A stretch of DNA of 14,746 nt. Origin: an uncultured Clostridia bacterium. Its GTDB lineage: Bacteria > Bacillota > Clostridia > Oscillospirales > Ruminococcaceae. The stretch is taken from the NCBI GenBank assembly GCA_947302065.1, contig CAMYUO010000010.1, positions 1-14,746 of the forward strand. The letters run 5' to 3'. This document shows positions 581 to 14,746 of the stretch, piece after piece. Every line of letters starts with the position of its first letter. Within the stretch, counting starts at the first letter, position 1. The notes under the pieces were generated by a model. It was not told the DNA's origin. It saw only the letters and a list, made by a program, of their open reading frames with translations, and ran no database searches. The position numbers and the translations under genes are program-made.

Positions 581-793
581 GTGATTGGTATTTACTGTGC
601 ATTTCTGTTATCCTCTCGATGTTGTTGAGGATATTCTCTTGGAAGTGCTATTCTCCAGACTCTCTCTTAGACTCTTACTAATTTTTCGTTACAGGGGACC
701 ATTAACTTTTCAAGTCCCCTGTGGCGAAAAATCAATAAAAGGTTTAGGAAAGGGGTCTGGGGGACAACCCTTCTCCAAAAGGGTTTCCCCCAA
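581..793 (+). repeat. Intergenic hairpin element A, copy 1 (A1), in the tatD leader
   Basis: This 213-nt stretch is homologous to 4246-4440 (opposite strand) and 4455-4676. Shared parts are a 5' segment with ATTGGT and CTCTTGGAAG-like text, a linker reading AAAAGGTTTAGGAA then GGGGTCTGGGGGA, and a terminal hairpin. Hairpin 1 has an outer stem ATTTTTCG (681-688) with CGAAAAAT (725-732) and an inner stem ACAGGGGAC (691-699) with GTCCCCTGT (714-722). Hairpin 2 pairs GGGGGA-C-AACCCTT (760s-772) with AAGGGTTTCCCCC (779-791) and has one bulged base. It starts just after a consensus promoter and ends about 9 nt before the tatD ribosome binding site. The long reading frame through it is an extension of tatD, not a separate protein. 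Confidence 0.8.
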
Positions 794-815
794 CGATACC
801 GAAAGGATAATACAA

Positions 816-1601
816 ATGAACAATATATTTGACACGCACTGTCACTATGATGACCACTGGTTTGATGAGGACAGGCAGGAGGTGCTTGACAGGGTACTTG
901 GCGACGGCTCGGTGGTTAGCTTTGTCAATCACGCAGCGACCGACGAGGCATCGGCGCTGTTCGGAATAGAAAATGCAAAAAAGTACAGAAACTACTATAC
1001 ATCTGTCGGCTTTCATCCCGAGTTTGCGAGCGTGCTGCCGCAGGACTGGGAAGCAAAGCTTGCTGAGCTTTACGAAAAGGCAAAAGCAACGGGCAAGCTC
1101 ACAGCAATAGGCGAGATAGGGCTTGACTATCACTATGATGGATACGACAGGGACAGGGAGATCGAGGTCTTTGAAAAGCAGCTCGTCTTTGCTAACGAAA
1201 AAGACCTGCCCGTCATCGTGCACTCCCGTGATGCCTCGCAGGATACGCTCGACCTGCTGAAAAAGCACGGCTCACGAGGCGTTATACATTGTTTTTCAGG
1301 CTCTGCCGAGGTCGCAAAACAGGCGCTCGCAATGGGCTTTTACATAGGCTTTACAGGTGTGCTCGCATTTAATAATGCCAAAAAAGCGCTCAAAGCGCTC
1401 GAGGTCGTGCCAATGGACAGGCTCGTGCTTGAAACGGACTGTCCGTATATGGCACCGCCGCCGTTTCGTGGTCAGCGCTGCGAAAGCCCGATGATCGCAG
1501 AGGTCGTTAAGGTCGTCGCCGCACAGAAATGTCTGACCGAACAGCAGGTTTGTGACCAGACCTGCGAGAACGCAAAGAAATTGTATGGAATAGAATTATA
1601 A
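816..1601 (+). CDS. tatD: TatD-family metal-dependent hydrolase
   Basis: The 261-aa protein has the usual TatD length. TatD-family proteins are TIM-barrel, divalent-metal nucleases (3'-5' exonuclease activity in E. coli). Metal ligands are visible in order: D6/H8/H10 in FDTHCH, E100 in GEIGLDYH, H136 in VIVHSRDA, H158 in IHCFSGS and D208 in LETDCPYMAPPPFRG; GFHP lies at 65-68. The ATG at 816 is chosen because AAAGGA (802-807) sits 8 nt upstream and the protein then begins directly with the metal-binding strand. The frame stays open back to 585, but that extension would only translate repeat A1. The gene has its own promoter at 537-565 and is followed immediately by repeat B1. Confidence 0.93.
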   Translation: MNNIFDTHCHYDDHWFDEDRQEVLDRVLGDGSVVSFVNHAATDEASALFGIENAKKYRNYYTSVGFHPEFASVLPQDWEAKLAELYEKAKATGKLTAIGEIGLDYHYDGYDRDREIEVFEKQLVFANEKDLPVIVHSRDASQDTLDLLKKHGSRGVIHCFSGSAEVAKQALAMGFYIGFTGVLAFNNAKKALKALEVVPMDRLVLETDCPYMAPPPFRGQRCESPMIAEVVKVVAAQKCLTEQQVCDQTCENAKKLYGIEL

Positions 1602-1860
1602 CAGGTTTTTTCGTCCACCTTTTTCTCGTAAAAAAGGTGGCGGGTCAAGGGCAGCGCCCTTGTCGCCGTCCGCAGACGGCGAAACGCCCCGTGCCGACAG
1701 GCGCTCCGCAAAGGGTGAATTTAAAAACAGTCCGGTGGACTGTTTTTAAAGAGGGAACGCCCTGCAAGAGAGGGCGTTCCTTTACCCTGTGGTAACGTCG
1801 GCTGCCTCAAACCCTATGGGTTTGACTTTCAAATCGCAAACCAACCGACCTCAGTCGGCA
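1602..1860 (+). repeat. Intergenic hairpin element B, copy 1 (B1)
   Basis: This region between tatD and the glycosyltransferase is homologous to 11576-11847. It is a chain of hairpins: 1615-1624/1631-1640 (loop CTCGTA), 1646-1652/1656-1662, CGCCGTC 1664-1670/1675-1681 (loop CGCA), 1721-1733/1737-1749 (13 bp, loop GGT), GGAACGCCCT 1754-1763/1771-1780 (loop GCAAGAG), CAAACCC 1808-1814/1818-1824, and CCGAC 1845-1849/1854-1858. Text conserved with B2 includes AACAGGTTTTTTCG, GCGCTCCGCAAAGGGTGAAT and ACCCTGTGGTAACGTCGG. No convincing promoter was seen inside it, so it probably forms the tatD 3' untranslated region and the leader of the next gene. Confidence 0.8.
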
Positions 1861-1884
1861 ATAATATACAAGGACAGGATAACA

Positions 1885-2838
1885 ATGCTTGAAAAACTCT
1901 ATATTGTGATACCTTGCTACAACGAGGAGGAAATGCTGCCGATAACGGCGAAAGCCCTGCTCGAAAAGATGCAGACGCTCGTTGATGAGGGCAAGGTACA
2001 CCCTGACAGCAAGGTGATGTTCGTCGATGACGGCTCAAAGGACAAAACGTGGGAAATAATCACAAAGCTCCACTCGATACCGTTTTTCACGGGCGTAAAG
2101 CTGTCACGCAACAAGGGTCACCAGAACGCCCTGCTCGCAGGAATGATGACCGCAATACAATATGCTGATCTAATAATCTCTATGGACGCCGACCTTCAGG
2201 ACGATATCGGTGCGATAGACGGATTCCTTGAGAAAAGAGCCGAGGGCTGTGAGATAGTCTACGGCGTGAGAAGCTCCCGTGAAAAGGACACCAAGTTCAA
2301 GCGTGGCACAGCACAGGGCTATTACAAAATGCTCTCCCGCATGGGCGTTGAGATAACATATAACCACGCAGATTACCGCCTTATGAGCAAGCGTGCCGTT
2401 GAAGCGCTCGCCGAGTTCAAAGAGGTCAATCTGTTCCTCAGAGGTCTTGTGCCGATGGTCGGCTTTAAAACCGACATCGTGACCTATGTGCGCAACGAGC
2501 GTCAGGCAGGCGAGTCAAAGTATCCGCTCAAAAAGATGATAGGCTTTGCTATCGAAGGCATAACCTCTATGTCGATCAAACCGATAAGATTCATCACGTT
2601 TATCGGTTTTCTGATATTCTTCGTGTCGATCGTCCTGCTGGTGAAGTTCCTTATCACTTGGGCGATAGGCAACACCGTTCCCGGCTGGTCAACGATAGTT
2701 ATCTCGATATGGGCTATCGGCGGACTGCAGCTGCTCTCTATCGGAGTCATCGGAGAGTATATCGGAAAAATATATCTTGAAACTAAGGCTCGGCCTAAGT
2801 ATATAATCGAAACTGATCTTGAAGAAAAAGGAGACTGA
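1885..2838 (+). CDS. Membrane-anchored family 2 glycosyltransferase (GtrB/CsbB/dolichol-phosphate-mannose-synthase-like)
   Basis: The 317-aa protein has an N-terminal GT2 domain and two C-terminal membrane helices (about 236-258 and 268-290). Motifs are IVIPCYNEEE (7-16), VDDGSKDKT (47-55), the metal/nucleotide-binding DADLQD (101-106), ADYRLM (162-167), NLFLRGL (182-188) and RQAGESKYPLKKM (206-218). This layout matches enzymes that transfer a sugar from a nucleotide donor to a polyprenyl phosphate on the inner membrane face for later glycan modification; the sugar cannot be read from sequence. ATG 1885 follows AAGGACAGGA and starts right at the GT2 fold; upstream in-frame codons lie in repeat B1. 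No GtrA-type flippase is adjacent. The stop is 4 nt before the SseB-domain gene, implying co-transcription. Confidence 0.9.
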   Translation: MLEKLYIVIPCYNEEEMLPITAKALLEKMQTLVDEGKVHPDSKVMFVDDGSKDKTWEIITKLHSIPFFTGVKLSRNKGHQNALLAGMMTAIQYADLIISMDADLQDDIGAIDGFLEKRAEGCEIVYGVRSSREKDTKFKRGTAQGYYKMLSRMGVEITYNHADYRLMSKRAVEALAEFKEVNLFLRGLVPMVGFKTDIVTYVRNERQAGESKYPLKKMIGFAIEGITSMSIKPIRFITFIGFLIFFVSIVLLVKFLITWAIGNTVPGWSTIVISIWAIGGLQLLSIGVIGEYIGKIYLETKARPKYIIETDLEEKGD

Positions 2839-2842
2839 AACC

Positions 2843-3388
2843 ATGCCAGAATTTAAAGTTGAAAATTTACAGGAGAGCGTTGAGAAGATCGACAACTCCG
2901 AATTTGTCAAGGCTATCGAAGCAATGAGAGCCGATTACACGGACGACAACAAGAACGACGTTATGAACAGAGCTGTTTTTGACGTTACATATTTCGTTCC
3001 CGCTTTCAGAGATGAAGGTTCATCTCTGACACAGGGCAAGGATGAAAGACTTTCTTTCTCGGAGCAGAGACAGGCAAGATTCGTTCTGCTCGAAAATCCT
3101 CAGGGCGAAAAGTATATCCCTGCTTTCACAGACCACGAGTCGCTGCTCAAATTCAGAAACGAGCAGGCTCAGGGCGCACAGGGATTCATCATGTCTTTCC
3201 CTGACCTCGCAAGCGTTGTTGAGGTTTTCCCGAACATCGCAGGCTTTGTTATCAACCCGTTCACTCACAACCTGCCGTTCGCTAAGGAATTCGTTGCAGA
3301 GATAAAGAAAAACATCGTCGCTCAGATGGAAAAGATAGAAGCAGAGCAGAAAAAAGCCAACATAACTATGTCCACAAACAACGAATAA
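2843..3388 (+). CDS. SseB N-terminal-domain protein
   Basis: This 181-aa soluble protein resembles the SseB N-terminal family (PF07179): FDVTYFVPAF (46-55), an insert, RFVLLENPQGEKYIPAFTDHESL (split 79-101), then FIMSFPDLASVV and FVINPFTHNLPF. The family name comes from an enhanced serine sensitivity phenotype in E. coli; its biochemical role is not established. ATG 2843 is preferred over ATG 2819 because AAAGGAG (2827-2833) sits 9 nt upstream of it and 2819 lies before that site and overlaps the glycosyltransferase. The C-terminus is a charged helix (about 148-172), perhaps coiled coil. No hairpin terminator follows; the next gene has its own promoter. Assigned by pattern recognition. Confidence 0.8.
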   Translation: MPEFKVENLQESVEKIDNSEFVKAIEAMRADYTDDNKNDVMNRAVFDVTYFVPAFRDEGSSLTQGKDERLSFSEQRQARFVLLENPQGEKYIPAFTDHESLLKFRNEQAQGAQGFIMSFPDLASVVEVFPNIAGFVINPFTHNLPFAKEFVAEIKKNIVAQMEKIEAEQKKANITMSTNNE

Positions 3389-3413
3389 TAATTATCTGTT
3401 CATACAGCGACTG

Positions 3414-3442
3414 TTGACAAAGTGCTTTTATCGTGTTATACT
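3414..3442 (+). promoter_or_regulatory. Sigma-A promoter for the membrane/coiled-coil gene
   Basis: TTGACA (3414-3419) and TATACT (3437-3442) are spaced by 17 bp, with TGT directly before the -10 (extended -10). The expected start is near 3449, giving a leader of about 48 nt containing AAAGGAG (3479-3485). Confidence 0.88.
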
Positions 3443-3496
3443 ATTAGTTAAAGAAAATGACCAATAGTTTTCTGTTGTAAAGGAGTCGTATCTAAA

Positions 3497-4192
3497 ATGG
3501 CGGATAAAAAGGAACTCGACCGAGTCAATCGCGTCGCTGACCTGATAGACCGATATTATCAGTTTGAAGACGCTGTTGATGTCAATAAACAGAATATTGA
3601 GTACCTCAAAACATATATCCACGACGGTGACTATGTTGAGCAGAACTTCGATATGAAGAGCAAGTTCCTGCGTGATATCGCTATTTCCGCAGGCGTGGCT
3701 GTCGTTGCGTTCGCAGTCGGCCTGTTATTCACGAACCTCATCATCGGCGGAATAATCGGCGTTGCCGCTCTGATCGTGTGCATAATCGTGTTCAAAGCGA
3801 TCGCTACGGCAAGGCTCAACGCCAAAAAGCAGGAGCAGGTCGAGGTAAACACGGGAATCACCGAGCAGATAGAGGTGCTTGAAAAGCGTACAAAGCAGAT
3901 GGAAAAACAGCGTGAAGACTATAAAAAAGGTCTCGAATCGAGGCTGGATTTCCTGTCTGTCGATTATATCGGCAATATCGGTACCGTCAAGGAGTATCTT
4001 GAAAAAGGCGAGGCAGAGACCTGCGAGGACGCTGTTGCACTGCTTGAGCAGAATATGATGATGGCAAAGCTGAGCGATGCGATGAACAAAAGTGCAAGAA
4101 AGCCGCTGGATATGGACTATAACCAGCAGAAAGAAAAGTTCGGCGACCCGCTTGCCGCTATCAAAGAAAGACGCAAAAAGAAAAGAAACTAA
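3497..4192 (+). CDS. Hypothetical membrane protein with central helical hairpin and coiled coil
   Basis: I do not recognise a family for this 231-aa protein. It has a charged helical N-terminus (1-58), two closely spaced hydrophobic helices (about 61-79 and 81-100) forming a membrane hairpin that would place both ends on the same side, a Q/E/K-rich segment likely to be coiled coil (about 106-150), and a strongly basic tail ending in ERRKKKRN. No signal peptide, cysteine motif or catalytic motif is visible, so a structural or scaffold role at the membrane is possible but not shown. The ATG follows AAAGGAG (3479-3485) at 11 nt. It is a single-gene unit, with its own promoter (3414-3442) and an intrinsic terminator directly after the stop. 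Confidence 0.85.
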   Translation: MADKKELDRVNRVADLIDRYYQFEDAVDVNKQNIEYLKTYIHDGDYVEQNFDMKSKFLRDIAISAGVAVVAFAVGLLFTNLIIGGIIGVAALIVCIIVFKAIATARLNAKKQEQVEVNTGITEQIEVLEKRTKQMEKQREDYKKGLESRLDFLSVDYIGNIGTVKEYLEKGEAETCEDAVALLEQNMMMAKLSDAMNKSARKPLDMDYNQQKEKFGDPLAAIKERRKKKRN

Positions 4193-4198
4193 TATTAA

Positions 4199-4228
4199 AA
4201 GCCTTGGATTTCACTCCAAGGCTTTTTT
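4199..4228 (+). terminator. Intrinsic terminator of the membrane/coiled-coil gene
   Basis: GCCTTGGA (4201-4208) pairs with TCCAAGGC (4215-4222) over a 6-nt loop and is followed by TTTTTT (4223-4228). It begins about 8 nt after the stop codon. Confidence 0.92.
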
Positions 4229-4245
4229 GTATGCTTGCTGCACAG

Positions 4246-4440
4246 CTGGGGGAAACCCTTTTGGAGAAGGGTTATCCCCCAGACCCCCTTCCTAAACCTT
4301 TTAAAGATTTTCGGCTGACGGGAGTTTTACTCCCGCAAGCCGAAAATGTCTAAGAGTTCAGAAAAGAGAGTGTGAGAAAAAACCTCCCAAGAGAGTGCCC
4401 TCAACAGTATAGCAGGTATACCTAAAACCAATACACATTT
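4246..4440 (-). repeat. Intergenic hairpin element A, copy 2 (A2), minus strand
   Basis: Read on the minus strand this aligns with A1 from ATTGG through GTTGAGG, CTCTTGG, AAAAGGTTTAGGAAG, GGGGTCTGGGGGA and the terminal hairpin ending CCCCCA. Hairpin 1 uses ATTTTCGGCT (4307-4316) with AGCCGAAAAT (4338-4347) around CGGGAGT (4319-4325) with ACTCCCG (4329-4335): different stem bases from A1 at the same place. Hairpin 2 is nearly identical to that of A1, including the single bulged base. A TGCTATACT extended -10-like string lies near its 5' end (minus, -10 at 4406-4411) but lacks a good -35. A2 and A3 are head to head. Confidence 0.8.
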
Positions 4441-4454
4441 GTTTACACCTTAAT

Positions 4455-4676
4455 TCTGTACGATTGGAAAGACCTCTTGAAAGTGTCATCTTCAAATCTC
4501 ACCCTGAGCCTTAGTCAAAAACAGGCATATGGGTCTATTTTTGTGCCCATATGCCTGTTTTTCATTAAAAGTTTTAGGGGTGGGGTTTGGGGATGCGACA
4601 GAGTAACCGTTACCACGGTTACTCCCGAGAGAATGGCAACGCCATTCTCGGCTTTATTCAAAAGGGTCCTCCCCAA
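4455..4676 (+). repeat. Intergenic hairpin element A, copy 3 (A3), divergent from A2
   Basis: This is homologous to A1 through GATTGG, CTCTTGAAAGTG, TTAAAAGTTTTAGGGG, GGGGTTTGGGGA and the ending CAAAAGGGTCCTCCCCAA. Hairpin 1 is replaced by an unrelated perfect 17-bp stem (4517-4533 with 4546-4562). The loop of hairpin 2 is expanded by two extra hairpins: AGTAACCG/CGGTTACT around 4593-4623, and GAGAATGGC/GCCATTCTC (4628-4650). It ends 3-4 nt from the stop codon of the minus-strand cardiolipin synthase gene. Together with A2 it fills the convergent intergenic region, and no gene is supported there. Confidence 0.75.
4517..4562. terminator. 17-bp perfect hairpin inside A3, possible bidirectional terminator
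   Basis: The stem AAAAACAGGCATATGGG (4517-4533) pairs perfectly with 4546-4562 over a 12-nt loop. Because one arm ends in T5 and the other begins with A5, either strand has a GC-containing stem ending in a U run. It could terminate the cardiolipin synthase transcript on the minus strand, about 120 nt after its stop. It also occupies the hairpin-1 position of element A, so termination may not be its origin. Confidence 0.55.
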
Positions 4677-4679
4677 TCA

Positions 4680-6263
4680 TTACAGCAATGGTGCAAATGG
4701 TTTCAAAACAGCGGAGGTGAGCTTGCTGAACAGCGAGCGTGACTCGATATCATCATAGGTTATCTCGTCGCAGCTGTTTTCAAACATATCGAGCATATCC
4801 GCCTTTATATCAGCGATACAGCTTGCATTGCGGACATAGGTCGCACACTCAAAGTGCAGATAAAGGCTTCTGAAATCGAGGTTTATCGTGCCGACAACAG
4901 CGGTGTCATCGTCAGAAACGAAAGTCTTTGCGTGGATAAAACCCGGCTGGTATTCATAAATGCGAACGCCGAGGTCCATAAGGTCTTTGTAGAACGACTT
5001 GGTGATGCAGTGAACATACCACTTATCGGGAATCCTCGGGGTGATGATGCGCACGTCAACACCGCTTTTTGCAGCGTAGCCAAGCGCAGTTATCATCTCG
5101 TTGTCCGGGATAAGATAAGGCGTGGTGATGTAAATATAATCATTTGCGTTGTTGATTATGTCCATGTAGACAAGCTCGCCGACGTTCTCGTCGTCAAGCG
5201 GAGAGTCGCCGTAAGGAATGATTATGCCGTCGGTCAGCGGGTACTGCGCCTCATCGGGTCGGTAAAGCTCGCATCTGGTGCGCTCGCCCGAAATGACGTC
5301 CCACATCTGAATGAACATCATCGTGAAATTCCACACAGCCTCGCCTCTGACGAGGATAGCGTTGTCTTTCCAGTGACCGAAACGTGTCTTCTGATTGATG
5401 TATTCGTCGGCAATGTTCACACCGCCCGTGATGCCGACGTTTCCGTCAACAACAAGTATCTTTCTGTGGTCACGGTTGTTCTGGACTGACGATATCATCG
5501 GTCTGAACGGGTTGAAAACCAGCGTTTTTATGCCTTTTTCAGCCATTTTCTGTTTGTATCTGAAAGGCAGGGTGAACTGGCTGCCCATTCCGTCATAGAT
5601 AAGGCGCACTTCAACGCCCTGCGAAACTTTTTCAAGCAGCACCTCAACGACTTCCTGCCACATCTTGCCGTCGTCAATGATGAAATACTCCATAAAGATG
5701 AACTTTTTCGCCTTGCGAAGCTCTTCGAGCATAACAGCGAATTTGGTCTCACCAAACGGCAGATAGACCGCCGATGAATTGCGGTAGGCAGGGTAGCCGC
5801 CGAAATGGTCGATGTACTTGACCATTTTTTCAAAGTCACGGTTTTCCGCAGCTATCTGCTGCAGCAGCGACCTGTCGGTCTTTAAATACTTCTTGGTCTC
5901 CTCGCATTTTTTCGAGTAGTTCATTTTAAGACGTCTTGAAGAATACTGATTGTTGAGTATCAGATAAAGCACCGACGTGAACACGGGGACTGCAATAAGC
6001 GGCACTATCCACGCCAGCTTGTATGCAGGGTTCTCGTTGGTGTTGATGATGACAAAGCCGAGGAATATCGCAAGCCACGAAAAGACGATGCGCTCATAGG
6101 TCGACATCCAGCTCAGCGTCGTAAATGTCAGCAGGATAAGCGAAAACTGCACAAGCAGCAGCATGATTATTGTTGTTTTCTTGGAAAAAGCGATACGTAT
6201 CAGCTTTTTAGGCTTTTTCTTCGGACGAGGCTGCGTCTTGTCCGCATTGTGTATAGTCTTCAC
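4680..6263 (-). CDS. cls: Cardiolipin synthase (phospholipase D superfamily)
   Basis: With the GTG start at 6263 this is 527 aa. Cls joins two phosphatidylglycerol molecules into cardiolipin plus glycerol at the cytoplasmic membrane. Hydrophobic helices lie at about 32-51, 60-74 and 82-104. Two PLD domains carry HKD motifs: HRKILVVD (H266, K268, D273) followed by GNVGITGGVNIADEY, and HAKTFVSD (H444, K446, D451) followed by DDTAVVGTINLDFRS. The frame is open to ATG 6329 and also has an ATG at 6296, but a promoter (6297-6325) overlaps or follows those codons, so they would not be transcribed. GTG 6263 has GGGGGGAG just upstream, at a short spacing of about 3 nt; this makes the exact start uncertain. 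It is divergent from the 61-aa protein gene. Confidence 0.92.
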   Translation of the reverse strand: MKTIHNADKTQPRPKKKPKKLIRIAFSKKTTIIMLLLVQFSLILLTFTTLSWMSTYERIVFSWLAIFLGFVIINTNENPAYKLAWIVPLIAVPVFTSVLYLILNNQYSSRRLKMNYSKKCEETKKYLKTDRSLLQQIAAENRDFEKMVKYIDHFGGYPAYRNSSAVYLPFGETKFAVMLEELRKAKKFIFMEYFIIDDGKMWQEVVEVLLEKVSQGVEVRLIYDGMGSQFTLPFRYKQKMAEKGIKTLVFNPFRPMISSVQNNRDHRKILVVDGNVGITGGVNIADEYINQKTRFGHWKDNAILVRGEAVWNFTMMFIQMWDVISGERTRCELYRPDEAQYPLTDGIIIPYGDSPLDDENVGELVYMDIINNANDYIYITTPYLIPDNEMITALGYAAKSGVDVRIITPRIPDKWYVHCITKSFYKDLMDLGVRIYEYQPGFIHAKTFVSDDDTAVVGTINLDFRSLYLHFECATYVRNASCIADIKADMLDMFENSCDEITYDDIESRSLFSKLTSAVLKPFAPLL

Positions 6264-6296
6264 TTTCTCCCCCCATTCTATTTTTTCTCCCACCAT

Positions 6297-6325
6297 ATTA
6301 TAACACTCAAATTGACTTTTTGCAA
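6297..6325 (-). promoter_or_regulatory. Sigma-A promoter for cardiolipin synthase
   Basis: On the minus strand TTGCAA (6320-6325) and TATAAT (6297-6302) are 17 bp apart, with TGT before the -10. Transcription should begin near 6290, which excludes the upstream ATG codons at 6329 and 6296 and supports GTG 6263. Confidence 0.85.
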
Positions 6326-6328
6326 GCA

Positions 6329-6368
6329 TTTGCGCCGTTTTCGCAGTTATATTAAGTTTTGGCGCAAA
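6329..6368. promoter_or_regulatory. Inverted repeat between divergent promoters, candidate operator
   Basis: TTTGCGCC (6329-6336) and GGCGCAAA (6361-6368) form a perfect 8-bp inverted repeat with a 24-bp spacer. The left half lies 3 bp beyond the -35 of the cardiolipin synthase promoter; the right half lies 26 bp before the -35 of the opposing promoter. A dyad in this position could bind a regulator controlling both genes, or loop as DNA. This is inference from placement. Confidence 0.45.
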
Positions 6369-6394
6369 AAGACTGTATTATTCAACAAAAACAG

Positions 6395-6423
6395 TTGCAA
6401 TCCGTAAAAAATCATTGTATAAT
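6395..6423 (+). promoter_or_regulatory. Sigma-A promoter for the 61-aa protein and xylulokinase
   Basis: TTGCAA (6395-6400) and TATAAT (6418-6423) are spaced by 17 bp. It has the same -35 variant as the divergent cardiolipin synthase promoter. The start is expected near 6430, leaving a short leader with AAAGGAG (6438-6444). Confidence 0.87.
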
Positions 6424-6452
6424 ATTCATATGCAATGAAAGGAGAAACTGCG

Positions 6453-6638
6453 ATGCAAAAAAAGTTTTACATAACAAAATGCAGTGAGAAACTCGAATCT
6501 GCGCCGCCTGTGACCGACAGATTCAAGCAGGTGGAGCATCTCAACGAACTGCTCGACCTCGGCTGGCGGATAAAAGAGCTCAAGGTCGAAAACTGCGACA
6601 CATATTTTATTCTGGAAAAAGAGGATAAGAAGGCGTAG
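6453..6638 (+). CDS. Small conserved-looking hypothetical protein, 61 aa
   Basis: The product is a small acidic/basic soluble protein beginning MQKKFYITKC and containing VEHLNELLDLGWRIKELKV and a final strand TYFILEK. The pattern of a helix, then GW-x-(I/V)-K and a terminal FIL-E-K strand recalls small DUF4177-like proteins, but I cannot confirm a family. ATG 6453 is chosen over ATG 6435 because AAAGGAG (6438-6444) lies 8 nt upstream of 6453 and downstream of 6435. It has its own promoter and ends 14 nt before xylulokinase, whose AAAGGAG overlaps this spacer, so the two genes should be co-transcribed. No functional link to xylulose metabolism can be seen. Confidence 0.8.
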   Translation: MQKKFYITKCSEKLESAPPVTDRFKQVEHLNELLDLGWRIKELKVENCDTYFILEKEDKKA

Positions 6639-6652
6639 AAAGGAGCTTTTCA

Positions 6653-8173
6653 ATGGCTTATCTGCTTGGAATAGACTGTGGAACGAGCGGAACAAAGACA
6701 GTCCTGTTTGACGAAAAAGGCGTGGTCATCGCCTCAGCATCGGCGGAATATCCGCTCTATCAGCCGCACAACGGCTATGCCGAGCAGGACACTGAGGACT
6801 GGAAAAAGGCAATGCTCAGCACGATAGGCGAGGTCATCGCAAAAAGCGGCATAGACAGCGCAGACATCGCAGGCATCGGGCTTTCGGGTCAGATGCACGG
6901 GCTTGTTATGCTCGACAGCGGCGGCAATGTCCTGCGAAAGTCAATAATCTGGTGCGACCAGCGCACGGGCGAGCAGGTCGATAAGATGAACGAGCTGTGC
7001 GGCGAAAAGATAGCCGAGATCAGCGCAAACCCTGCGCTCACAGGCTGGACAGCCGCAAAGATACTCTGGGTGCGTGACAACGAGCCACAGGTCTATGAAA
7101 AGTGCAGGCACATACTTTTGCCGAAGGACTATCTGCGCTATGTGCTCACGGGCGAGCTTGCCACAGAGGTGTCTGATGCGAGCGGAATGCAGCTGCTCGA
7201 TGTAAAAAAACGCTGCTGGTCGGGCGAGCTGTGCGAACTGCTCGGCATAGACAAGGGCTTGCTTGCGCCTGTTTACGAGTCGTGCGAGGTCACGGGCAGG
7301 GTAACAAAGCAAATTGCAGAGCAAACGGGTCTGAAAGAGGGCACGATAGTTGTGGGCGGTGCAGGCGATAACGCCGCAGCTGCGCTGGGAACGGGAGTTT
7401 GCCGGCAGGGCAGGGCGTTCACGACGATAGGCACATCGGGAGTTGTCTTTGCGCACACCGACACGCCGCTTATCGACCCTAAGGGCAGGGTTCACACCTG
7501 CTGCGCCGCTGTGCCGAACAGCTGGCACGTCATGGGCGTGACGCAGGCGGCTGGACTTTCGCTGCGCTGGTTTCGGGACAATTTCTGCGAAAGCGAGATG
7601 CTCTCGGCAAAGCAGCTCGGCGTGAGCGAATACGAGCTGATGAGCAAGCAGGCAGAGGAGATTCCCGCAGGCTGCGAACGGCTGCTGTATCTGCCGTATC
7701 TAATGGGCGAGCGCACACCGCACCTCGATGCAGACGCAAGAGGCGTGTTCTTCGGGCTATCGGCGGTGCACACCAAAAAGCATATGCTGCGTGCGGTAAT
7801 GGAGGGCGTGGCTTACTCGCTGCGTGACTGTGTTGAGGTATTCAGGGAAATGGGCGTTTCCGTTTCGGATATGGCTGCCTGCGGCGGCGGCGGAAGCTCA
7901 CCGCTTTGGCGCTCGATGCTTGCAGACCTTTACGGCTGCGGTGTCAAGACGGTCACGAGCAAAGAGGGTCCCGCACTCGGTGCGGCGATACTTGCATCTG
8001 TGGGCGCAGGCGTTTACTCATCGGTCGAGCAGGCTTGCGAGACGCTCGTACAGAGCAAGGACATGACACCGCCCGACACCGAAAGGGCAGCGGTCTATGA
8101 GCAGTATTATCAGATGTACCGCTCGCTTTACCCTGCGCTGAAAGGCAGCTATCAGGCACTCAAAAAACTATAA
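6653..8173 (+). CDS. xylB: Xylulokinase (FGGY carbohydrate kinase)
   Basis: The 506-aa protein phosphorylates D-xylulose with ATP to xylulose 5-phosphate, feeding the pentose phosphate pathway in the cytosol. N-terminal FGGY domain: GIDCGTSGTKTVLFD (6-20), the xylulokinase signature GLSGQMHGLVMLD (76-88), WCDQRT (100-105), LLPKDYLRYVLTGE (155-168), SDASGMQLLDV (174-184). The catalytic base is D239 in GGAGDNAAAALG. C-terminal domain: TIGTSGVVF, LPYLMGERTPH, GVFFGL, ACGGGGSSPLWRSMLADLYG and EGPALGAAILA. Order, length and GQMHG match XylB rather than glycerol or rhamnulose kinases. AAAGGAG lies 6 nt before ATG 6653. No xylose isomerase, transporter or regulator is adjacent, so it stands apart from a xylose operon within this window. 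Confidence 0.96.
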   Translation: MAYLLGIDCGTSGTKTVLFDEKGVVIASASAEYPLYQPHNGYAEQDTEDWKKAMLSTIGEVIAKSGIDSADIAGIGLSGQMHGLVMLDSGGNVLRKSIIWCDQRTGEQVDKMNELCGEKIAEISANPALTGWTAAKILWVRDNEPQVYEKCRHILLPKDYLRYVLTGELATEVSDASGMQLLDVKKRCWSGELCELLGIDKGLLAPVYESCEVTGRVTKQIAEQTGLKEGTIVVGGAGDNAAAALGTGVCRQGRAFTTIGTSGVVFAHTDTPLIDPKGRVHTCCAAVPNSWHVMGVTQAAGLSLRWFRDNFCESEMLSAKQLGVSEYELMSKQAEEIPAGCERLLYLPYLMGERTPHLDADARGVFFGLSAVHTKKHMLRAVMEGVAYSLRDCVEVFREMGVSVSDMAACGGGGSSPLWRSMLADLYGCGVKTVTSKEGPALGAAILASVGAGVYSSVEQACETLVQSKDMTPPDTERAAVYEQYYQMYRSLYPALKGSYQALKKL

Positions 8174-8180
8174 TACGCAC

Positions 8181-8220
8181 AAAAAAAGGCTCGGTCAGAT
8201 GACCGAGCCTCTATTATTTT
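8181..8220. terminator. Terminator between convergent xylB and zinc-ribbon gene
   Basis: GGCTCGGTC (8188-8196) pairs with GACCGAGCC (8201-8209) around AGAT. On the minus strand the stem is followed by seven T (complement of 8181-8187), a strong terminator for the zinc-ribbon gene 16 nt away. On the plus strand the tail CTATTATTTT is weaker but could also end the xylB transcript. Confidence 0.9.
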
Positions 8221-8224
8221 GCAA

Positions 8225-10213
8225 TTATGCAGCCTTTTTGGTTGTTGTGGTGGTCTCCTCGGGAGCCTTTTCAGTTTCCTTTGTGGTCTCCTCAGGCTTC
8301 TTTTCATCAGCCTTTGTCTCTGCCGGCTTTGCAGCGCCGATAGTTGTGATAGTGTAGTTCTTGCCATCGTTCTCAACAGCCTTGTCAAGAGACTCCTGCT
8401 CCTTGTACAGTGTTACTCTTGCACCGGACTCGTCAACAGCGACCTCAGAACCCTTAACGATCGGGTTTCTCAGCTTGATAAGACCGTATGCTGTAACGTT
8501 GCCCTTGTCTGTAACAACGGTAGCAACTACCTGCTTAACGATGTAGCACTTAGCTGATGAGTTAGCTGTAGCCTCGTCATACTCATAGAGCATTGTCTTA
8601 GCATCCTTGAATGCAACGCTCTTGATCTTGCCGCCTGCGCTCAGACCGGACAGATAAGTTCTGTCAACAGCCTCATCGGAAGCCTGCTTCTTGATCTTGT
8701 CGAACTCTGCATTGAACTTAGCAACGAGATCTGCGTCTGCGTCCTTGCCAAGATACTTAGGAGCGTCGTCACCAACGGTGATCTCCTTTACATAGTAGCC
8801 GTCCTCGTCAGGTGTGCCCTCAGGAACAAAACCTGCGTTTGAGAACTTGTTGCTTGCATATGCCTTAACCTTGAATGTGTCGCCTACCTTGAGCTCCTTT
8901 GAGGAATCCTCAATGTAGAATCTTACGCCGTCCTTAACTTCCTGCGAGCAGTTTTCGGTGTTGACCTTGCTTGCTCTGAGGTAAGGAACTGCGTTTCTGT
9001 ATTCGATAGTGATATCCTTGAAGATATCTACCTTTGTCATCTCTGTCAGACCCTCAACGGTGAATTCCTTCTCCATTGTTGCCTTTTCAGCGGTGTAGCA
9101 GTTTCCGTCAGAATACTCAACGAATACTGCGCCCTCAGGATCGTTAGGATCAGCATACTGAGCACCTCTGAGTCTTGCGATAACAACTACCTTGTCGCCG
9201 TTCTTGAGGTTTTTGTAGTATGTATCCTTGAATGAATATCTTACAAAGCTCTTTGCGCCGGAAGTATCAAGCTCTGCAGAGCCCTTGCCGTCGTTGCCCT
9301 CGAACTTGACAGCAACGCCGTCGAACATATCGATCTTTGTACCGCTCTTGAGTCCCTCAACGGTAACTTCATACTCAGCGTTCTCGATCTTGATGTTCTT
9401 ATCTTCGAGATAGCTCTCGTTGAACTCGAGCTTGATCGTAACGGTATCGTCGTTTTTCAGACCCTTAGCCTTATCCTCACCGTTAACAGTGATCTTCAGG
9501 CCTGCGCTCTCGCTGAGCAGTGCGTCACGCATCTCACGAGCTTCCTTGATGTTGCCAGCCTTTGTGTAAGCGTCGAGCAGTTTCTTCTCGCCTACCTCAA
9601 AGTAAGGAGACTTGGCATTTTCCTCATCATCTCCCGTAAGGGATGTGTCGCCGAGATAATCGGTCACTTCACCGAGGTTGTAAACGCTGTCGCTGTACTT
9701 ATTGAGCGTTGCGGAAGCAACTCCGCCGCCGTCTATACCGCTGAACTTGACTTTGATAAGATCCTTTGCATCTATCTTCTGGAATCTGAAGAAGATGTGC
9801 TTGATAACAAAGAAACCAACGATGCACACTACAAGCGCAACAGCGATGATGATGATGAGCTTGAGGTTCTTCTTGAAGAAGTTGTCGCCCGTCTTAACAG
9901 CTGCGCCCGGTGCACCAAAGCCCGGCTGCGGCTGACCGCCTGCATAGAAATTGTTCTGCTGCGGCTGGAAACCTGTCTGCTGCGGCTGCTGGAATGGATT
10001 CTGTGTGTTCTGGGTGTTCTGAGTGTTTACTGTATTTACTGTGTTTACAGTATTTGCAGTAGCCTGAGTGTTCACAGCTGCAGTATTCTGACCTGCGCCT
10101 GCTGCACTCTGCTGAGCCTGCATTTCAGCGATGTTTGCTCCGCACCCCAGACAGAACTTGTCATCCGGTCCTAACTGATGACCGCATTTGAGACAAAATT
10201 TGATAGTATTCAT
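8225..10213 (-). CDS. Zinc-ribbon, single-pass membrane protein with repeated extracytoplasmic modules
   Basis: About 662 aa. The N-terminus is a zinc ribbon (FCLKCG and FCLGCG; C7, C10, C21, C24), followed by a flexible N/T/Q/P/G-rich linker (about 31-110) with NTV/NTQ repeats, KKNLK and one membrane helix (about 117-138). The rest is probably outside the cell. I see three related modules starting near 146 (KIDAKDLIKVKFSGIDG), 291 (KIDMFDGVAVKFEGNDG) and 392 (KVDIFKDITIEY), two of them preceded by LK-NGD-type strands, suggesting tandem beta domains. A further domain covers about 486-625 and ends in a T/E/K-rich tail. N-terminal zinc ribbon plus one helix is a common layout of Firmicutes surface proteins of unknown role. 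Start supported by GGAGGAAGAG just upstream. Confidence 0.9.
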   Translation of the reverse strand: MNTIKFCLKCGHQLGPDDKFCLGCGANIAEMQAQQSAAGAGQNTAAVNTQATANTVNTVNTVNTQNTQNTQNPFQQPQQTGFQPQQNNFYAGGQPQPGFGAPGAAVKTGDNFFKKNLKLIIIIAVALVVCIVGFFVIKHIFFRFQKIDAKDLIKVKFSGIDGGGVASATLNKYSDSVYNLGEVTDYLGDTSLTGDDEENAKSPYFEVGEKKLLDAYTKAGNIKEAREMRDALLSESAGLKITVNGEDKAKGLKNDDTVTIKLEFNESYLEDKNIKIENAEYEVTVEGLKSGTKIDMFDGVAVKFEGNDGKGSAELDTSGAKSFVRYSFKDTYYKNLKNGDKVVVIARLRGAQYADPNDPEGAVFVEYSDGNCYTAEKATMEKEFTVEGLTEMTKVDIFKDITIEYRNAVPYLRASKVNTENCSQEVKDGVRFYIEDSSKELKVGDTFKVKAYASNKFSNAGFVPEGTPDEDGYYVKEITVGDDAPKYLGKDADADLVAKFNAEFDKIKKQASDEAVDRTYLSGLSAGGKIKSVAFKDAKTMLYEYDEATANSSAKCYIVKQVVATVVTDKGNVTAYGLIKLRNPIVKGSEVAVDESGARVTLYKEQESLDKAVENDGKNYTITTIGAAKPAETKADEKKPEETTKETEKAPEETTTTTKKAA
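9998..10075 (-). repeat. In-frame 9-nt minisatellite encoding the NTV/NTQ linker
   Basis: On the coding strand the units read approximately AACACT/CAG or AACAC(A/T)GTA, producing NTQ-AT-ANTV-NTV-NTV-NTQ-NTQ-NTQ. The period of nine keeps frame, so copy-number change would lengthen or shorten the cytoplasmic linker between zinc ribbon and membrane helix without breaking the gene. Confidence 0.75.
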
Positions 10214-10285
10214 ATCTCTTCCTCCATCAAAAAATTGTTCTTGTCATATCATATATTGTGTCTCCATAGATACTTTGACAGTATA

Positions 10286-10314
10286 ATTATATATTATACT
10301 CAAATCGTTGTCAA
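10286..10314 (-). promoter_or_regulatory. Sigma-A promoter for the zinc-ribbon membrane protein
   Basis: On the minus strand TTGACA (10309-10314) and TATAAT (10286-10291) match consensus fully with a 17-bp spacer that is very AT-rich. The start is expected near 10279, giving a leader of about 65 nt to the ATG at 10213. Confidence 0.88.
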
Positions 10315-10505
10315 TAAAAATAACGATTTTCATATAAAATACGCAATTTTGACCACCTCCCGTGCTCTTTTTTGTTTATTTGAACAAACTGTGAGACATT
10401 TATTTCACCTACCTGTCACAAAAGCAGTTTTTACGCCGTTTGCGCATAGGCTGCGGCGTTTTTGTCAACACTGTCATTGTGCAGAATTTTCAAAGAGGTG
10501 AGCAG
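10315..10505 (+). promoter_or_regulatory. Leader region of the DUF421 gene with a terminator-like hairpin
   Basis: There is no gene between 10214 and 10505. Besides the minus-strand promoter, I see an inverted repeat TTTGTT/AACAAA around 10370-10387 and a hairpin ACGCCG (10433-10438) with CGGCGT (10454-10459) followed by T5 (to 10463), which looks like a weak terminator about 40 nt before the DUF421 start. A clear plus-strand promoter was not found, so how DUF421 is expressed is unresolved. Confidence 0.4.
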
Positions 10506-11192
10506 ATGTTCATTGTATTTTTCAGGGCGGTCATACTTTATCTTATCATCGTCGGCGGTGTGCGGCTGATGGGCAAGCGCCAGCTGGGCGAGCTGCAGCC
10601 GTCGGAGCTCGTGGTCACGGTGCTTTTATCAAACATTGCGACTCTGCCTGTTGAAAACACGGGCATCCCGATGCTTATGGGCATTATCCCGATATTCACG
10701 CTGGTGAGCCTTGATGTGATACTTTCGCATCTGCTCATGCGTTTCAGACCGCTGCGCAAGGCGATGTGCGGCTGTGCAAAAATAGTTATCTCGGGCGGTC
10801 GGATAGACCAGAAAGTGCTCAGAGACCTGCGGTTCTCGGTCGATGACCTGATGCAGAGCCTGCGCAGTCAGCAGGTTTTCGACATCGCACAGGTGCAGCT
10901 TGCCGTCGTCGAAACGACAGGGCAGATAAGCGTTTATCAGAAACAGCCCTTTCAGCCTGCGACCTGCAAAGACCTGAAAATAAAAGGCGAGAGCGCCGAC
11001 CCGCCTCAGCTCGTCATCGACAGCGGCAGGGTAGTCGAGGGTGCGCTCACATCGCTCGGCTTTGATGATAAGTGGCTGCAAAGCACCCTTGCGTCAAAGG
11101 GTCTGCGCACAAAAGACGTTTTCATAATGACCTGCACCAAAGACGCACAGACGAGCATTATCCCGTTTGAAAGAAAGGCGGCAGGCAGATGA
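10506..11192 (+). CDS. DUF421 / YetF-family membrane protein
   Basis: The 228-aa protein has three predicted N-terminal membrane helices (about 3-20, 35-49, 54-78) and a cytosolic C-terminal YetF-type domain. Family marks are GVRLMGKRQLGELQPSELVV (18-37), SNIATLP, and SVDDLMQSLRSQQVFDIAQV (111-130) followed by QLAVVETTGQISV. DUF421 proteins are common in spore-forming Firmicutes; their biochemical activity is not settled. ATG 10506 follows AGAGGTGA (10494-10501); the longer frame from 10440 would translate the upstream hairpin and lacks a ribosome site. The stop overlaps the DUF4363 start by four bases (ATGA), implying translational coupling. Confidence 0.9.
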   Translation: MFIVFFRAVILYLIIVGGVRLMGKRQLGELQPSELVVTVLLSNIATLPVENTGIPMLMGIIPIFTLVSLDVILSHLLMRFRPLRKAMCGCAKIVISGGRIDQKVLRDLRFSVDDLMQSLRSQQVFDIAQVQLAVVETTGQISVYQKQPFQPATCKDLKIKGESADPPQLVIDSGRVVEGALTSLGFDDKWLQSTLASKGLRTKDVFIMTCTKDAQTSIIPFERKAAGR

Positions 11193-11560
11193 AAAGGCTT
11201 GTTATCAGCATTTGCATACTTGTGTTCATCGCAGCGCTCTCGGTCGGCTCGGTCGTTATGATAAAGCTGGGCAACGAGCAGCTCGGCGAGCTTGTGGAAA
11301 GCACCGAGCAGGCGTATCTGAGCGGCGGCGACACCAAAAAAGCGCTTGACGAGCTTGAAAGCTTCTGGGATAAGTATTATCTTGCGCTGTCGTATTTTTC
11401 TGCCGAGCCGACCATGGCGGATATGACACGGGCAGTAAAAAAGCTGCCCGACCTGTACAAAGCGGGCAGCGATGATTTTCTTGCGGAACTCAATAGTATA
11501 AAACACTGGTCAAAGCTGCTGTATGATACGCAGTTTCCCGACCTGTCGTCGATATTCTGA
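11189..11560 (+). CDS. DUF4363-family membrane-anchored protein
   Basis: This 123-aa protein has an N-terminal hydrophobic helix (about 4-26, after MKR) and a helical extracytoplasmic remainder with ESFWDKYYLALSYF and LLYDTQFPDLSSIF. I place it in DUF4363, which often sits directly behind DUF421 genes in Clostridia. It starts inside the DUF421 stop codon (ATGA at 11189-11192), so the two are made together and may act as a membrane complex; that is inference. Repeat B2 begins about 16 nt after its stop. The helix lacks a lipobox and probably stays as an anchor. Confidence 0.85.
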   Translation: MKRLVISICILVFIAALSVGSVVMIKLGNEQLGELVESTEQAYLSGGDTKKALDELESFWDKYYLALSYFSAEPTMADMTRAVKKLPDLYKAGSDDFLAELNSIKHWSKLLYDTQFPDLSSIF

Positions 11561-11575
11561 ATATTACTCAATAAT

Positions 11576-11847
11576 AACAGGTTTTTCGCCCAGCCTTTTC
11601 TCGTAAAAGAAAGGCAAATTGTCCTTCGGACAATCGGGGTCAAGGGCGGCGCCCTTGTCGCTGACCGCAGTCAGCGAAATCCCTTACCTCGTGCGCTCCG
11701 CAAAGGGTGAATTTTCAAACAGTCCTGTGGACTGTTTGAAAATGAGGTTTACCACTGCTACGCAGTGCCAAGCCCTGCAAGAGAGGGCGCTCCCTTACCC
11801 TGTGGTAACGTCGGTATCCTCAATCCGCATGCGAAAGTGCGGATTGA
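11576..11847 (+). repeat. Intergenic hairpin element B, copy 2 (B2)
   Basis: Homologous to 1602-1824. Hairpins: 11593-11598/11610-11615, CAAGGGC 11641-11647/11651-11657, CGCTGAC 11659-11665/11670-11676 (loop CGCA), 11712-11725/11729-11742 (14 bp, loop TGT), GCCCT 11772-11776/11784-11788 (loop GCAAGAG) and CAATCCGC 11821-11828/11839-11846. Two hairpins absent from B1 are inserted: ATTGTCC/GGACAAT (11618-11634, loop TTC) and CACTGC/GCAGTG (11753-11767, loop TAC). Stems differ from B1 in sequence but stay paired. It lies between convergent genes (DUF4363 plus, GH130 minus). From 11848 to 11901 I see nothing identifiable. Confidence 0.8.
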
Positions 11848-12914: not shown

Positions 12915-12955
12915 AATAATGAATAGTGAATAGTGAATAATGAAAAGTGAATAAT
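12915..12955. repeat. Heptamer tandem repeat in the GH130 leader
   Basis: Five degenerate 7-bp units plus a partial one read AATAATG, AATAGTG, AATAGTG, AATAATG, AAAAGTG, AATAAT on the plus strand. On the minus strand this is a CATTATT/CACTATT run directly before the GH130 ribosome binding site (12907-12911). Similar TTCAYTATT arrays are familiar in intergenic DNA of Clostridia. A small hairpin ATCGCC/GGCGAT (12962-12977) lies next to it. Confidence 0.8.
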
Positions 12956-12993
12956 TGCGGTATCGCCTTGCGGCGATGATTTTGAATATAAGC

Positions 12994-14539: not shown

Positions 14540-14583
14540 TTACTTTCCCTCTCCCATTTACAAAACAGTTCCTGCCGAACAGC

Positions 14584-14603
14584 TGGGGGAAACCCTTTTG
14601 AAG
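14584..14603 (-). repeat. Truncated end of element A, copy 4 (A4)
   Basis: The first bases match the 3' end of A2 exactly: ACAGCTGGGGGAAACCCTTTTG (14579-14600, with flank), then diverge where A2 continues into the other hairpin arm. Only the outermost arm of the terminal hairpin survives; everything internal is replaced by PASTA coding sequence. Confidence 0.7.
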
Positions 14604-14746
14604 AAGCCAAAAACGGCAAATCGATCGTGCCTTACGTCATTTGGGACACACAAGAGGACGCTGTTTCAAAGTTGAAGCAAGCCGGTCTTGCAGAGCCTAA
14701 AATAGAAACAAAGAACGATGATAATGTTGAAGCAGGAAAAGTCATC
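14600..14746 (+). pseudogene. PASTA-domain fragment, probably from a Stk/PrkC-type kinase or PBP; 5' end missing
   Basis: Read from 14600, the frame gives EEAKNGKSIVPYVIWDTQED, then AVSKLKQAGLAEPKIETKND and DNVEAGKVI, running off the window. This is the PASTA signature: VP-x-V, a helix with A-x-x-x-L-x-x-AGL, two strands, and the closing G-K-V-I. PASTA domains bind peptidoglycan outside the cell in PrkC-type Ser/Thr kinases and some penicillin-binding proteins. There is no start codon or ribosome site; the frame upstream is just the antisense of the DUF4321 gene. The fragment starts exactly at the broken A element. It is either a decayed or rearranged gene remnant or an assembly join. Confidence 0.65.

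What the first reader, a model, noticed from the sequence alone, without database searches (positions are those of the whole stretch)
1602..11847. Element B: hairpin mosaic with compensatory stem changes and whole-hairpin insertions
B1 (1602-1860) and B2 (11576-11847) align along about 240 nt. In the third hairpin CGCCGTC/GACGGCG becomes CGCTGAC/GTCAGCG, two compensated pairs around an unchanged CGCA loop. CAAACCC/GGGTTTG becomes CAATCCGC/GCGGATTG; the first hairpin changes its stem but keeps a CTCGTA loop; the 13-bp stem around GGT becomes a 14-bp stem around TGT. B2 also carries two extra complete hairpins that B1 lacks, cleanly inserted. Single-stranded text such as ACCCTGTGGTAACGTCGG is conserved exactly. 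This is the same style of evolution as element A and suggests hairpins behave as modular units.
Basis: seen in the sequence. Interest (0 to 1): 0.75.

Follow-up and report, generated by a model that had tools for sequence, protein, structure and literature searches.

The report
Shuffled hairpin-cassette repeats in Ruminococcus
The two sequences are copies of a common non-coding DNA repeat in Ruminococcus-type bacteria, built from small hairpins that are added, removed and exchanged as units while both sides of each hairpin change together so that it keeps pairing.

Summary
Observation confirmed, interpretation mostly supported. B1 and B2 belong to a dispersed family: B1 has 42 matches in this 2.17-Mb partial genome and matches in 15 of 29 genomes of the genus, its own included. 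A core model hits 38 of 297 genomes, in 20 of 126 genera of the family. Stems covary: 126 and 78 double-change cells against shuffle means of 35.4 and 21.6. Hairpin presence is modular: five slots have bimodal lengths. Inserts are not perfectly clean; a neighbouring stem arm is altered. One orthologous copy pair (L110/L124) differs by two whole cassettes. Stem types reassort between copies. Many relatives are bounded by a 14-bp inverted repeat, TAAATCAGAATTTA, around very different cargo, so this looks like a MITE-like element. At 7 of 11 orthologous sites the element occurs in both orientations (3 of the 7 with both flanks matched). Mismatches favour G-U over A-C (16 to 1), hinting at RNA-level selection. 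No IS630-type transposase passed its cut-off in the genus; the mobiliser is unknown. Closest known kind: composite repeats such as pneumococcal BOX.

The parts
1597..1613 (+). B1 5' end (inner terminal repeat, TATAACAGGTTTTTTCG); the preceding gene (TatD family) stops inside it (TAA at 1599-1601)
   Evidence: gene; sites without B in other species:
1615..1640 (+). B1 hairpin H1, loop CTCGTA
1646..1662 (+). B1 hairpin H2
1663..1682 (+). B1 hairpin H3, loop CGCA
1720..1750 (+). B1 hairpin H5, 14 bp, loop GGT
   Evidence: covariance-model match 1714-1782 (B1 is in the model's own alignment)
1754..1780 (+). B1 hairpin H6, loop GCAAGAG
1784..1801 (+). B1 conserved unpaired text ACCCTGTGGTAACGTCGG (replaced by other text in many copies)
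1808..1824 (+). B1 hairpin H8 CAAACCC/GGGTTTG, last family-conserved part
11571..11588 (+). B2 5' end (inner terminal repeat, ATAATAACAGGTTTTTCG)
11593..11615 (+). B2 hairpin H1, weakened: right arm altered beside the cassette, loop CTCGTA kept
11616..11635 (+). B2 cassette in slot S1 (ATTGTCC/GGACAAT hairpin), absent from B1
11641..11657 (+). B2 hairpin H2
11658..11677 (+). B2 hairpin H3 with two compensated pairs against B1
11711..11743 (+). B2 hairpin H5, 15 bp, loop TGT
   Evidence: covariance-model match 11706-11775
11748..11771 (+). B2 cassette in slot S4 (CACTGC/GCAGTG hairpin), absent from B1; stands where the outer left arm of H6 is in B1
11772..11788 (+). B2 hairpin H6, shortened
   Evidence: and the sequence (the minimum-energy fold pairs this stretch otherwise)
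11797..11814 (+). B2 conserved unpaired text
11821..11846 (+). B2 hairpin H8 CAATCCGC/GCGGATTG
4602..4649 (+). Double-hairpin cassette (AGTAACCG..CGGTTACT plus GAGAATGGC..GCCATTCTC) in a different repeat of the window; the same cassette fills slot S0 of some B copies

Best explanation
B1 and B2 are copies of a non-coding, MITE-like interspersed repeat family. SHOWN: the family has many copies, intergenic in the cases read closely; many relatives are bounded by inverted repeats (outer TAAATCAGAATTTA, inner ATAATAACAGGTTTTT), and sites are empty in some other species; the interior is a row of hairpins; five slots between hairpins are empty or hold a whole hairpin cassette; stem types and cassettes occur in reassorted combinations; stems stay paired. 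INFERRED: copies were spread by an unidentified transposase acting on the inverted repeats. Afterwards the interior is reshuffled and sometimes inverted by short-tract recombination (ectopic gene conversion or replication template switching) between copies, anchored on the inverted repeats and on shared stem and loop text. Hairpins survive because a paired stem is selected as RNA on the B + strand and/or restored by hairpin-templated repair.
For: Copies: 42 matches, 2 of them H5 read on the opposite strand; 15 of 29 genomes; 38 of 297. Covariation. Bimodal slot lengths: (S0 filled 10 of 71, S1 5 of 66 plus one unrelated long outlier, S2 2 of 79, S3 5 of 74, S4 9 of 75). Orthologous pair with and without cassettes: (L110, L124). 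Reassortment: four-gamete violations for all 10 hairpin pairs tested, also within the own genome alone. Terminal repeats: 315 hits (up to 1 mismatch) in 5 genomes against 2 for the reversed-pattern control; 20 of 20 chosen pairs enclose 116-583 bp. At one orthologous site two species share the right-hand repeat and flank but have different interiors, and two species are empty (L117, L357, L353, L354). Flank and repeat variant kept while the interior flips: (L031 against L104; L032 against L093). G-U 16, A-C 1.
Against: No transposase was found: PF13358 gave no match over its cut-off in 29 genomes, and no repeat pair enclosing a transposase was seen in the part of the capped list shown or in the fetched loci; other transposase families were not searched. 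No orientation bias relative to flanking open frames (22, 20, 19, 13 and one undetermined of 75 entries, rough frame calls), which argues against a fixed mRNA role. G-U cells come from only 6 distinct pairs against 1 for A-C, so the RNA-level signal is modest. Site duplication was not proved. Four-gamete violations can also come from repeated change. Orientation differences at the other five inverted sites could be independent insertions, and four of the seven rest on one matched flank. B1 and B2 themselves show no 3' terminal repeat.
Confidence: 0.66

Rival explanations
1. Paired changes and even new hairpins are made by replication template switching (quasi-palindrome correction) alone, with no selection for the fold.
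For: Stem types differ by blocks with almost no intermediates: 21 non-Watson-Crick cells of 1348; H3 pairs 71/80 and 72/79 switched G-C to C-G or T-A to A-T in 20 cells with no mismatch cell. The process is described in PMC8794818 (passages read).
Against: Strand-neutral correction predicts equal G-T and A-C; 16 to 1 was seen, 34 to 9 in a wider and looser count, 3 to 1 in other genera. In the copies read by eye I saw no hairpin or loop inverted on its own. The same cassette recurs in a different repeat type, so it is shared, not made anew each time.
Confidence: 0.3
2. The element is a functional cis-acting or self-transcribed structured RNA (terminator, stabiliser, protein-binding RNA) kept in place by selection.
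For: Strong covariation, G-U bias on the + strand, H5/H6 and their loops conserved in other genera.
Against: No Rfam match in the B regions. No orientation bias; both orientations at 7 of 11 orthologous sites; orthologous sites empty in other species.
Confidence: 0.17
3. An ordinary MITE family in which old copies merely decay; hairpin differences are deletions or independent insertions, and some mosaics are metagenome assembly errors.
For: Several copies run to contig ends; B2-type inserts could be ancestral; direction was not polarised.
Against: Slot lengths are bimodal, not ragged. The two-cassette copy L124 is found letter for letter in record NZ_JHXH01000013.1, Ruminococcus sp. FC2018, which is not titled a MAG. 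Stems stay paired while differing.
Confidence: 0.2

Closest known systems
BOX elements of Streptococcus pneumoniae and S. suis (PMC3049150, passages read)
   Same: Composite intergenic repeats made of modules, one present in variable number, strongly structured if transcribed, with terminal inverted repeats; [quoted passage not shown]
   Different: No sequence link was tested; here there are at least five insertion slots, compensatory stem types in reassorted combinations, and interiors found in either orientation at orthologous sites.
MITEs of prokaryotes (review PMC10969869, passages read)
   Same: Short, terminal inverted repeats, mostly intergenic, stable transcript folds.
   Different: Source transposase unknown; cargo inside one kind of inverted-repeat pair ranges from 116-bp elements to hairpin mosaics to an open frame. 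The review's main text has no occurrence of 'Ruminococc' or 'Clostridi'.
REP/BIME and REPIN palindromes (PMC2817692, PMC3116915; search listing and abstract starts only)
   Same: Mosaic palindromic repeats in many copies.
   Different: REPs are 20-40 bp (PMC3733652, abstract start); the element here is about 240-430 nt with several distinct hairpins. REP-associated tyrosine transposases were not searched for.
Hairpin elements of mitochondria: double-hairpin elements, sponge repetitive hairpin-forming elements (PMC2800124; titles and abstract starts only)
   Same: Hairpin-forming repeats treated there as invading elements.
   Different: Organellar; no link tested.

Membership tests
MITE | terminal inverted repeats | tested here: met
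   for the long form; inner repeat at both ends of L076 and L094. Not seen at the 3' end of B1 or B2 themselves.
MITE | short, no transposase gene | tested here: met
   116-583 bp in 20 of 20 chosen pairs; one holds an open frame that has no Pfam match
MITE | target-site duplication | tested here: inconclusive
   Repeat ends in TA on both sides, and an empty site is compatible with TA, but flanks are too diverged to prove it
MITE | mobilised by a transposase with matching ends | tested here: inconclusive
   Only PF13358 was searched: none over cut-off in 29 genomes, two weak matches below it
IS630/Tc1-derived MITE | IS630-type transposase (DDE_3) in the same genomes | tested here: not met
BOX element | modular composite with variable module number | tested here: met
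BOX element | sequence homology to boxA/boxB/boxC | not tested
   BOX sequences were not fetched
Known RNA family | Rfam match | tested here: not met
   of 8 matches at E up to 5 in the window, none overlaps B1 or B2

The most novel reading that the evidence does not exclude
The hairpin cassette itself is a mobile unit: single and double hairpins move between positions and between different repeat families by taking the place of one arm of a host stem, inside inverted-repeat frames whose whole interior can be swapped or flipped in place, with RNA-level selection keeping only versions that pair.
Probability: 0.27. Interest if true: 0.82.

Novelty: new variant of a known kind. Interest (0 to 1): 0.62.

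Why it matters
It offers many natural, closely related hairpins, some at orthologous sites, in which to ask how paired stems change on both sides at once: selection, template switching or gene conversion. It also shows a high-copy repeat type in Ruminococcus-type bacteria for which my searches aimed at these organisms or at the core sequence (open-licence papers only) found no description; copies that run to contig ends suggest that it breaks assemblies.

Tried and rejected
Chance similarity: rejected by copy number and covariation. Rfam RNA family: none in B1 or B2 (the 8 matches lie elsewhere in the window, below their gathering scores). IS630 origin: no DDE_3 match over the cut-off. An autonomous element between the outer repeats: no pair enclosing a transposase in what was seen (one search shows only part of its list; one search covers the fetched loci); one 852-bp pair in L250 is degenerate and holds a 253-aa frame, not followed further. 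Orientation bias against genes: none, with rough frame calls. The first regex attempts at counting mismatches matched unrelated text and were dropped; others (17 to 3; 34 to 9) are looser and include the loci, which were chosen with a pattern that fixes part of H5. One search, on alignments A2 and A3 restricted to H2, H3 and H5 (H1 and H6 left out because of register shifts), is the one relied on. One search (13 H5 and 13 H6 stems from 40 loci of other genera) gave G-T 3, A-C 1, other 9, of which 5 come from one unrelated match (L322). The H1b flags include false positives, and its H1 column misses one stem type; one search replaces the flags. One search repeated without double entries and gave the same counts. 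The alignment was not used for counting. Notes in the notebook name sites gyrB, atpD, proB from recall; this was not tested.
Full report
What was checked. They align over about 240 nt, and each folds far more stably than shuffles (z = -9.22 for both). The named compensatory changes are in the sequence. The H5 stems are one base pair longer than stated, and B1's family-conserved part ends near 1826.

It is a high-copy family. B1 finds 42 matches in the window's own genome (2.17 Mb, 380 contigs, 70% complete), two of which are the H5 palindrome read on the opposite strand; B2 finds 45; several matches are fragments at contig ends. In the genus, 15 of 29 genomes match B1, the own one included. 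A covariance model of the H5-H6 core, built from 47 copies, hits 38 of 297 genomes of the family, in 20 of 126 genera, at E up to 1e-6 (with stricter filters that lose weak matches); several reached 17 matches, which equals the number of candidates scored.

Covariation. On 46 distinct 5' cores (H1-H3, 25 pairs), 99.7% of cells pair; 126 cells changed on both sides against 35.4 in shuffles and 0-16 when the partner is slid. On 47 distinct 3' cores (H5-H6, 25 pairs) the figures are 97.4%, 78 against 21.6, and 1-22 when slid. These shuffles do not remove relatedness. Two measures were not above shuffles: pairs with a double change (9 against 8.1) and further pair types (15 against 16.3). In one search they were (11 against 6.1 and 24 against 20.0; 0 and 8 of 500 shuffles reached them).

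Cassettes. Distances between fixed landmarks were measured in the copies of my collection (104 entries from own-genus loci) that hold both landmarks (one search found no double entries). S0: 13-15 or 66-70 nt (10 of 71 filled, double hairpin). S1: 15-17 or 35-36 (5 of 66 filled, one 85-nt outlier of another kind). S2: 9-12 or 29 (2 of 79). S3: 48-54, one 40, or 75-76 (5 of 74). S4: 18-20 or 39-41 (9 of 75). No length lies between the two groups of a slot. Copies whose landmarks had changed (for instance L090, with a hairpin in slot S1) are not in these counts. The cassettes also vary with compensation, for example CACTGC/GCAGTG, CACGGC/GCCGTG and CAAGGC/GCCTTG in S4. Read from the sequences, a filled slot goes with a changed or shortened arm of a neighbouring stem, so 'cleanly inserted' is too strong.

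Shared cassettes. The double hairpin at 4602-4649 has 18 matches in the own genome. Of the 16 readable by pattern, 4 stand directly after a B 5' end and 12 stand in other repeat text.

Orthologous copies. Matching the flanks of the fetched copies gives 11 sites with copies in two or more species, plus two doubtful ones (L023/L081 and L102/L113, one flank each). At one site L110 and L124 are the same copy by flanks on both sides and by unique text inside, yet L124 has the double-hairpin cassette and the S3 cassette and L110 has neither. L124's copy is letter for letter in the record of Ruminococcus sp. FC2018 (L165), L110's in a UBA3767 assembly (L205). Stem types reassort: all 10 pairs of hairpins break the four-gamete rule, within the own genome alone too (repeated change could also do this).

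Ends. In several relatives copies are bounded by TAAATCAGAATTTA and its inverse. In five genomes this 14-mer with up to one mismatch occurs 315 times, against 2 for the reversed-pattern control. I fetched 20 chosen pairs: all 20 have both ends (up to 2 mismatches), with 116-583 bp from end to end; by eye 4 hold B cores (2 of them joined to the other repeat type of the window), 8 hold that other type without B, 7 a short GAATAGTGAATAGT repeat, and one an open frame. So B and the other repeat of the window are cargoes of one superfamily. B1, B2 and many own-genome copies lack the outer repeat and begin at an inner one, ATAATAACAGGTTTTT, which closes both ends in L076 and L094 and lies at the 3' end of the cut-off copy at C61.

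Empty and re-used sites. B1's site is short and empty in G023, G016 and G021; in G022, G018, G006 and G008 the gap is longer and I recognise no B copy in it; G028 has an inverted remnant. B2's site is empty in four species (G021, G016, G023, G022) and holds another hairpin element in G028. At the L117 site G016 has a B element and G028 a different interior between the same outer repeats, with the same right-hand junction; G023 and G021 are empty; G022 has a decayed mosaic.

Orientation. At 7 of the 11 sites the element occurs in both orientations; in 3 of the 7 both flanks match, in 4 only one flank was available or matched. At two sites the flank and the terminal repeat next to it are shared while the interior is reversed (L031 against L104; L032 against L093, which share the variant TATAATAT), which fits inversion or replacement between the end repeats. 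For the other five, independent insertion is not excluded. The elements show no orientation preference against neighbouring frames (22, 20, 19, 13 and one undetermined of 75 entries).

Why stems stay paired. If pairing were restored at DNA level only, G-T and A-C mismatches should be equal, because one is the other on the opposite strand. In H2, H3 and H5 of alignments A2 and A3, 16 cells are G-T and 1 is A-C (binomial p 0.0003), with 4 other mismatches among 1348 cells. Copies are related and the G-T cells fall on 6 pairs, so this is a hint, not proof. It favours RNA-level selection on the B + strand. Against that stand the lack of orientation bias and the near absence of intermediates, which fit template switching as described in PMC8794818 (passages read). 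Both may act.

Mobiliser. Inverted repeats ending in TA suggested an IS630-like origin (recall), but PF13358 has no match over its cut-off in the genus (two weak ones in two genomes). Other families were not searched.

Known or new. No Rfam match overlaps B1 or B2. Paper searches for Ruminococcus with MITE, for R. flavefaciens with repetitive intergenic text, for three core sequence strings and for interspersed repeats in Ruminococcaceae found no description (listings only, open-licence papers only). The closest kind is the modular BOX repeat (PMC3049150, passages read). I therefore call it a new variant of a known kind. Gene names of flanking genes other than those are not claimed.

Noticed in passing
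window 665-800, 4245-4400, 4560-4680, 14580-14610: Other repeats of the same inverted-repeat superfamily (GGGGGAAACCCTTTTGGAGAAGGGTT type, by eye); relatives in L291-L300 lie between TAAATCAGAATTTA repeats, and in L294 and L295 this type and B are joined.
   Followed up: partly
L301 104-686: The outer repeats enclose an open frame: 191 aa from a GTG that lies 19 nt outside the repeat (130-705, -), or about 174 aa from an ATG inside it; no Pfam match for the 191-aa form. Possibly a passenger gene.
   Followed up: partly
L012, L076, L031 3' ends: The inner terminal repeat read outwards contains TGTTATTAT, with TATTAT 18-19 nt after TTGACA or TTGATA, like an outward-facing promoter; read by eye, not tested.
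   Followed up: no
L302-L306, L308, L309; window about 12918-12980: 116-197 bp elements with the same outer repeats and an internal GAATAGTGAATAGT repeat; similar text is in the window.
   Followed up: no
L204: A core copy in a 1.49-Mb contig titled Alistipes sp.; may be mislabelled or a transfer.
   Followed up: no
L291-L310 ends: The outer repeat TAAATCAGAATTTA is itself a small interrupted palindrome (TAAAT-CAGA-ATTTA), so the element begins and ends with a possible hairpin too.
   Followed up: no
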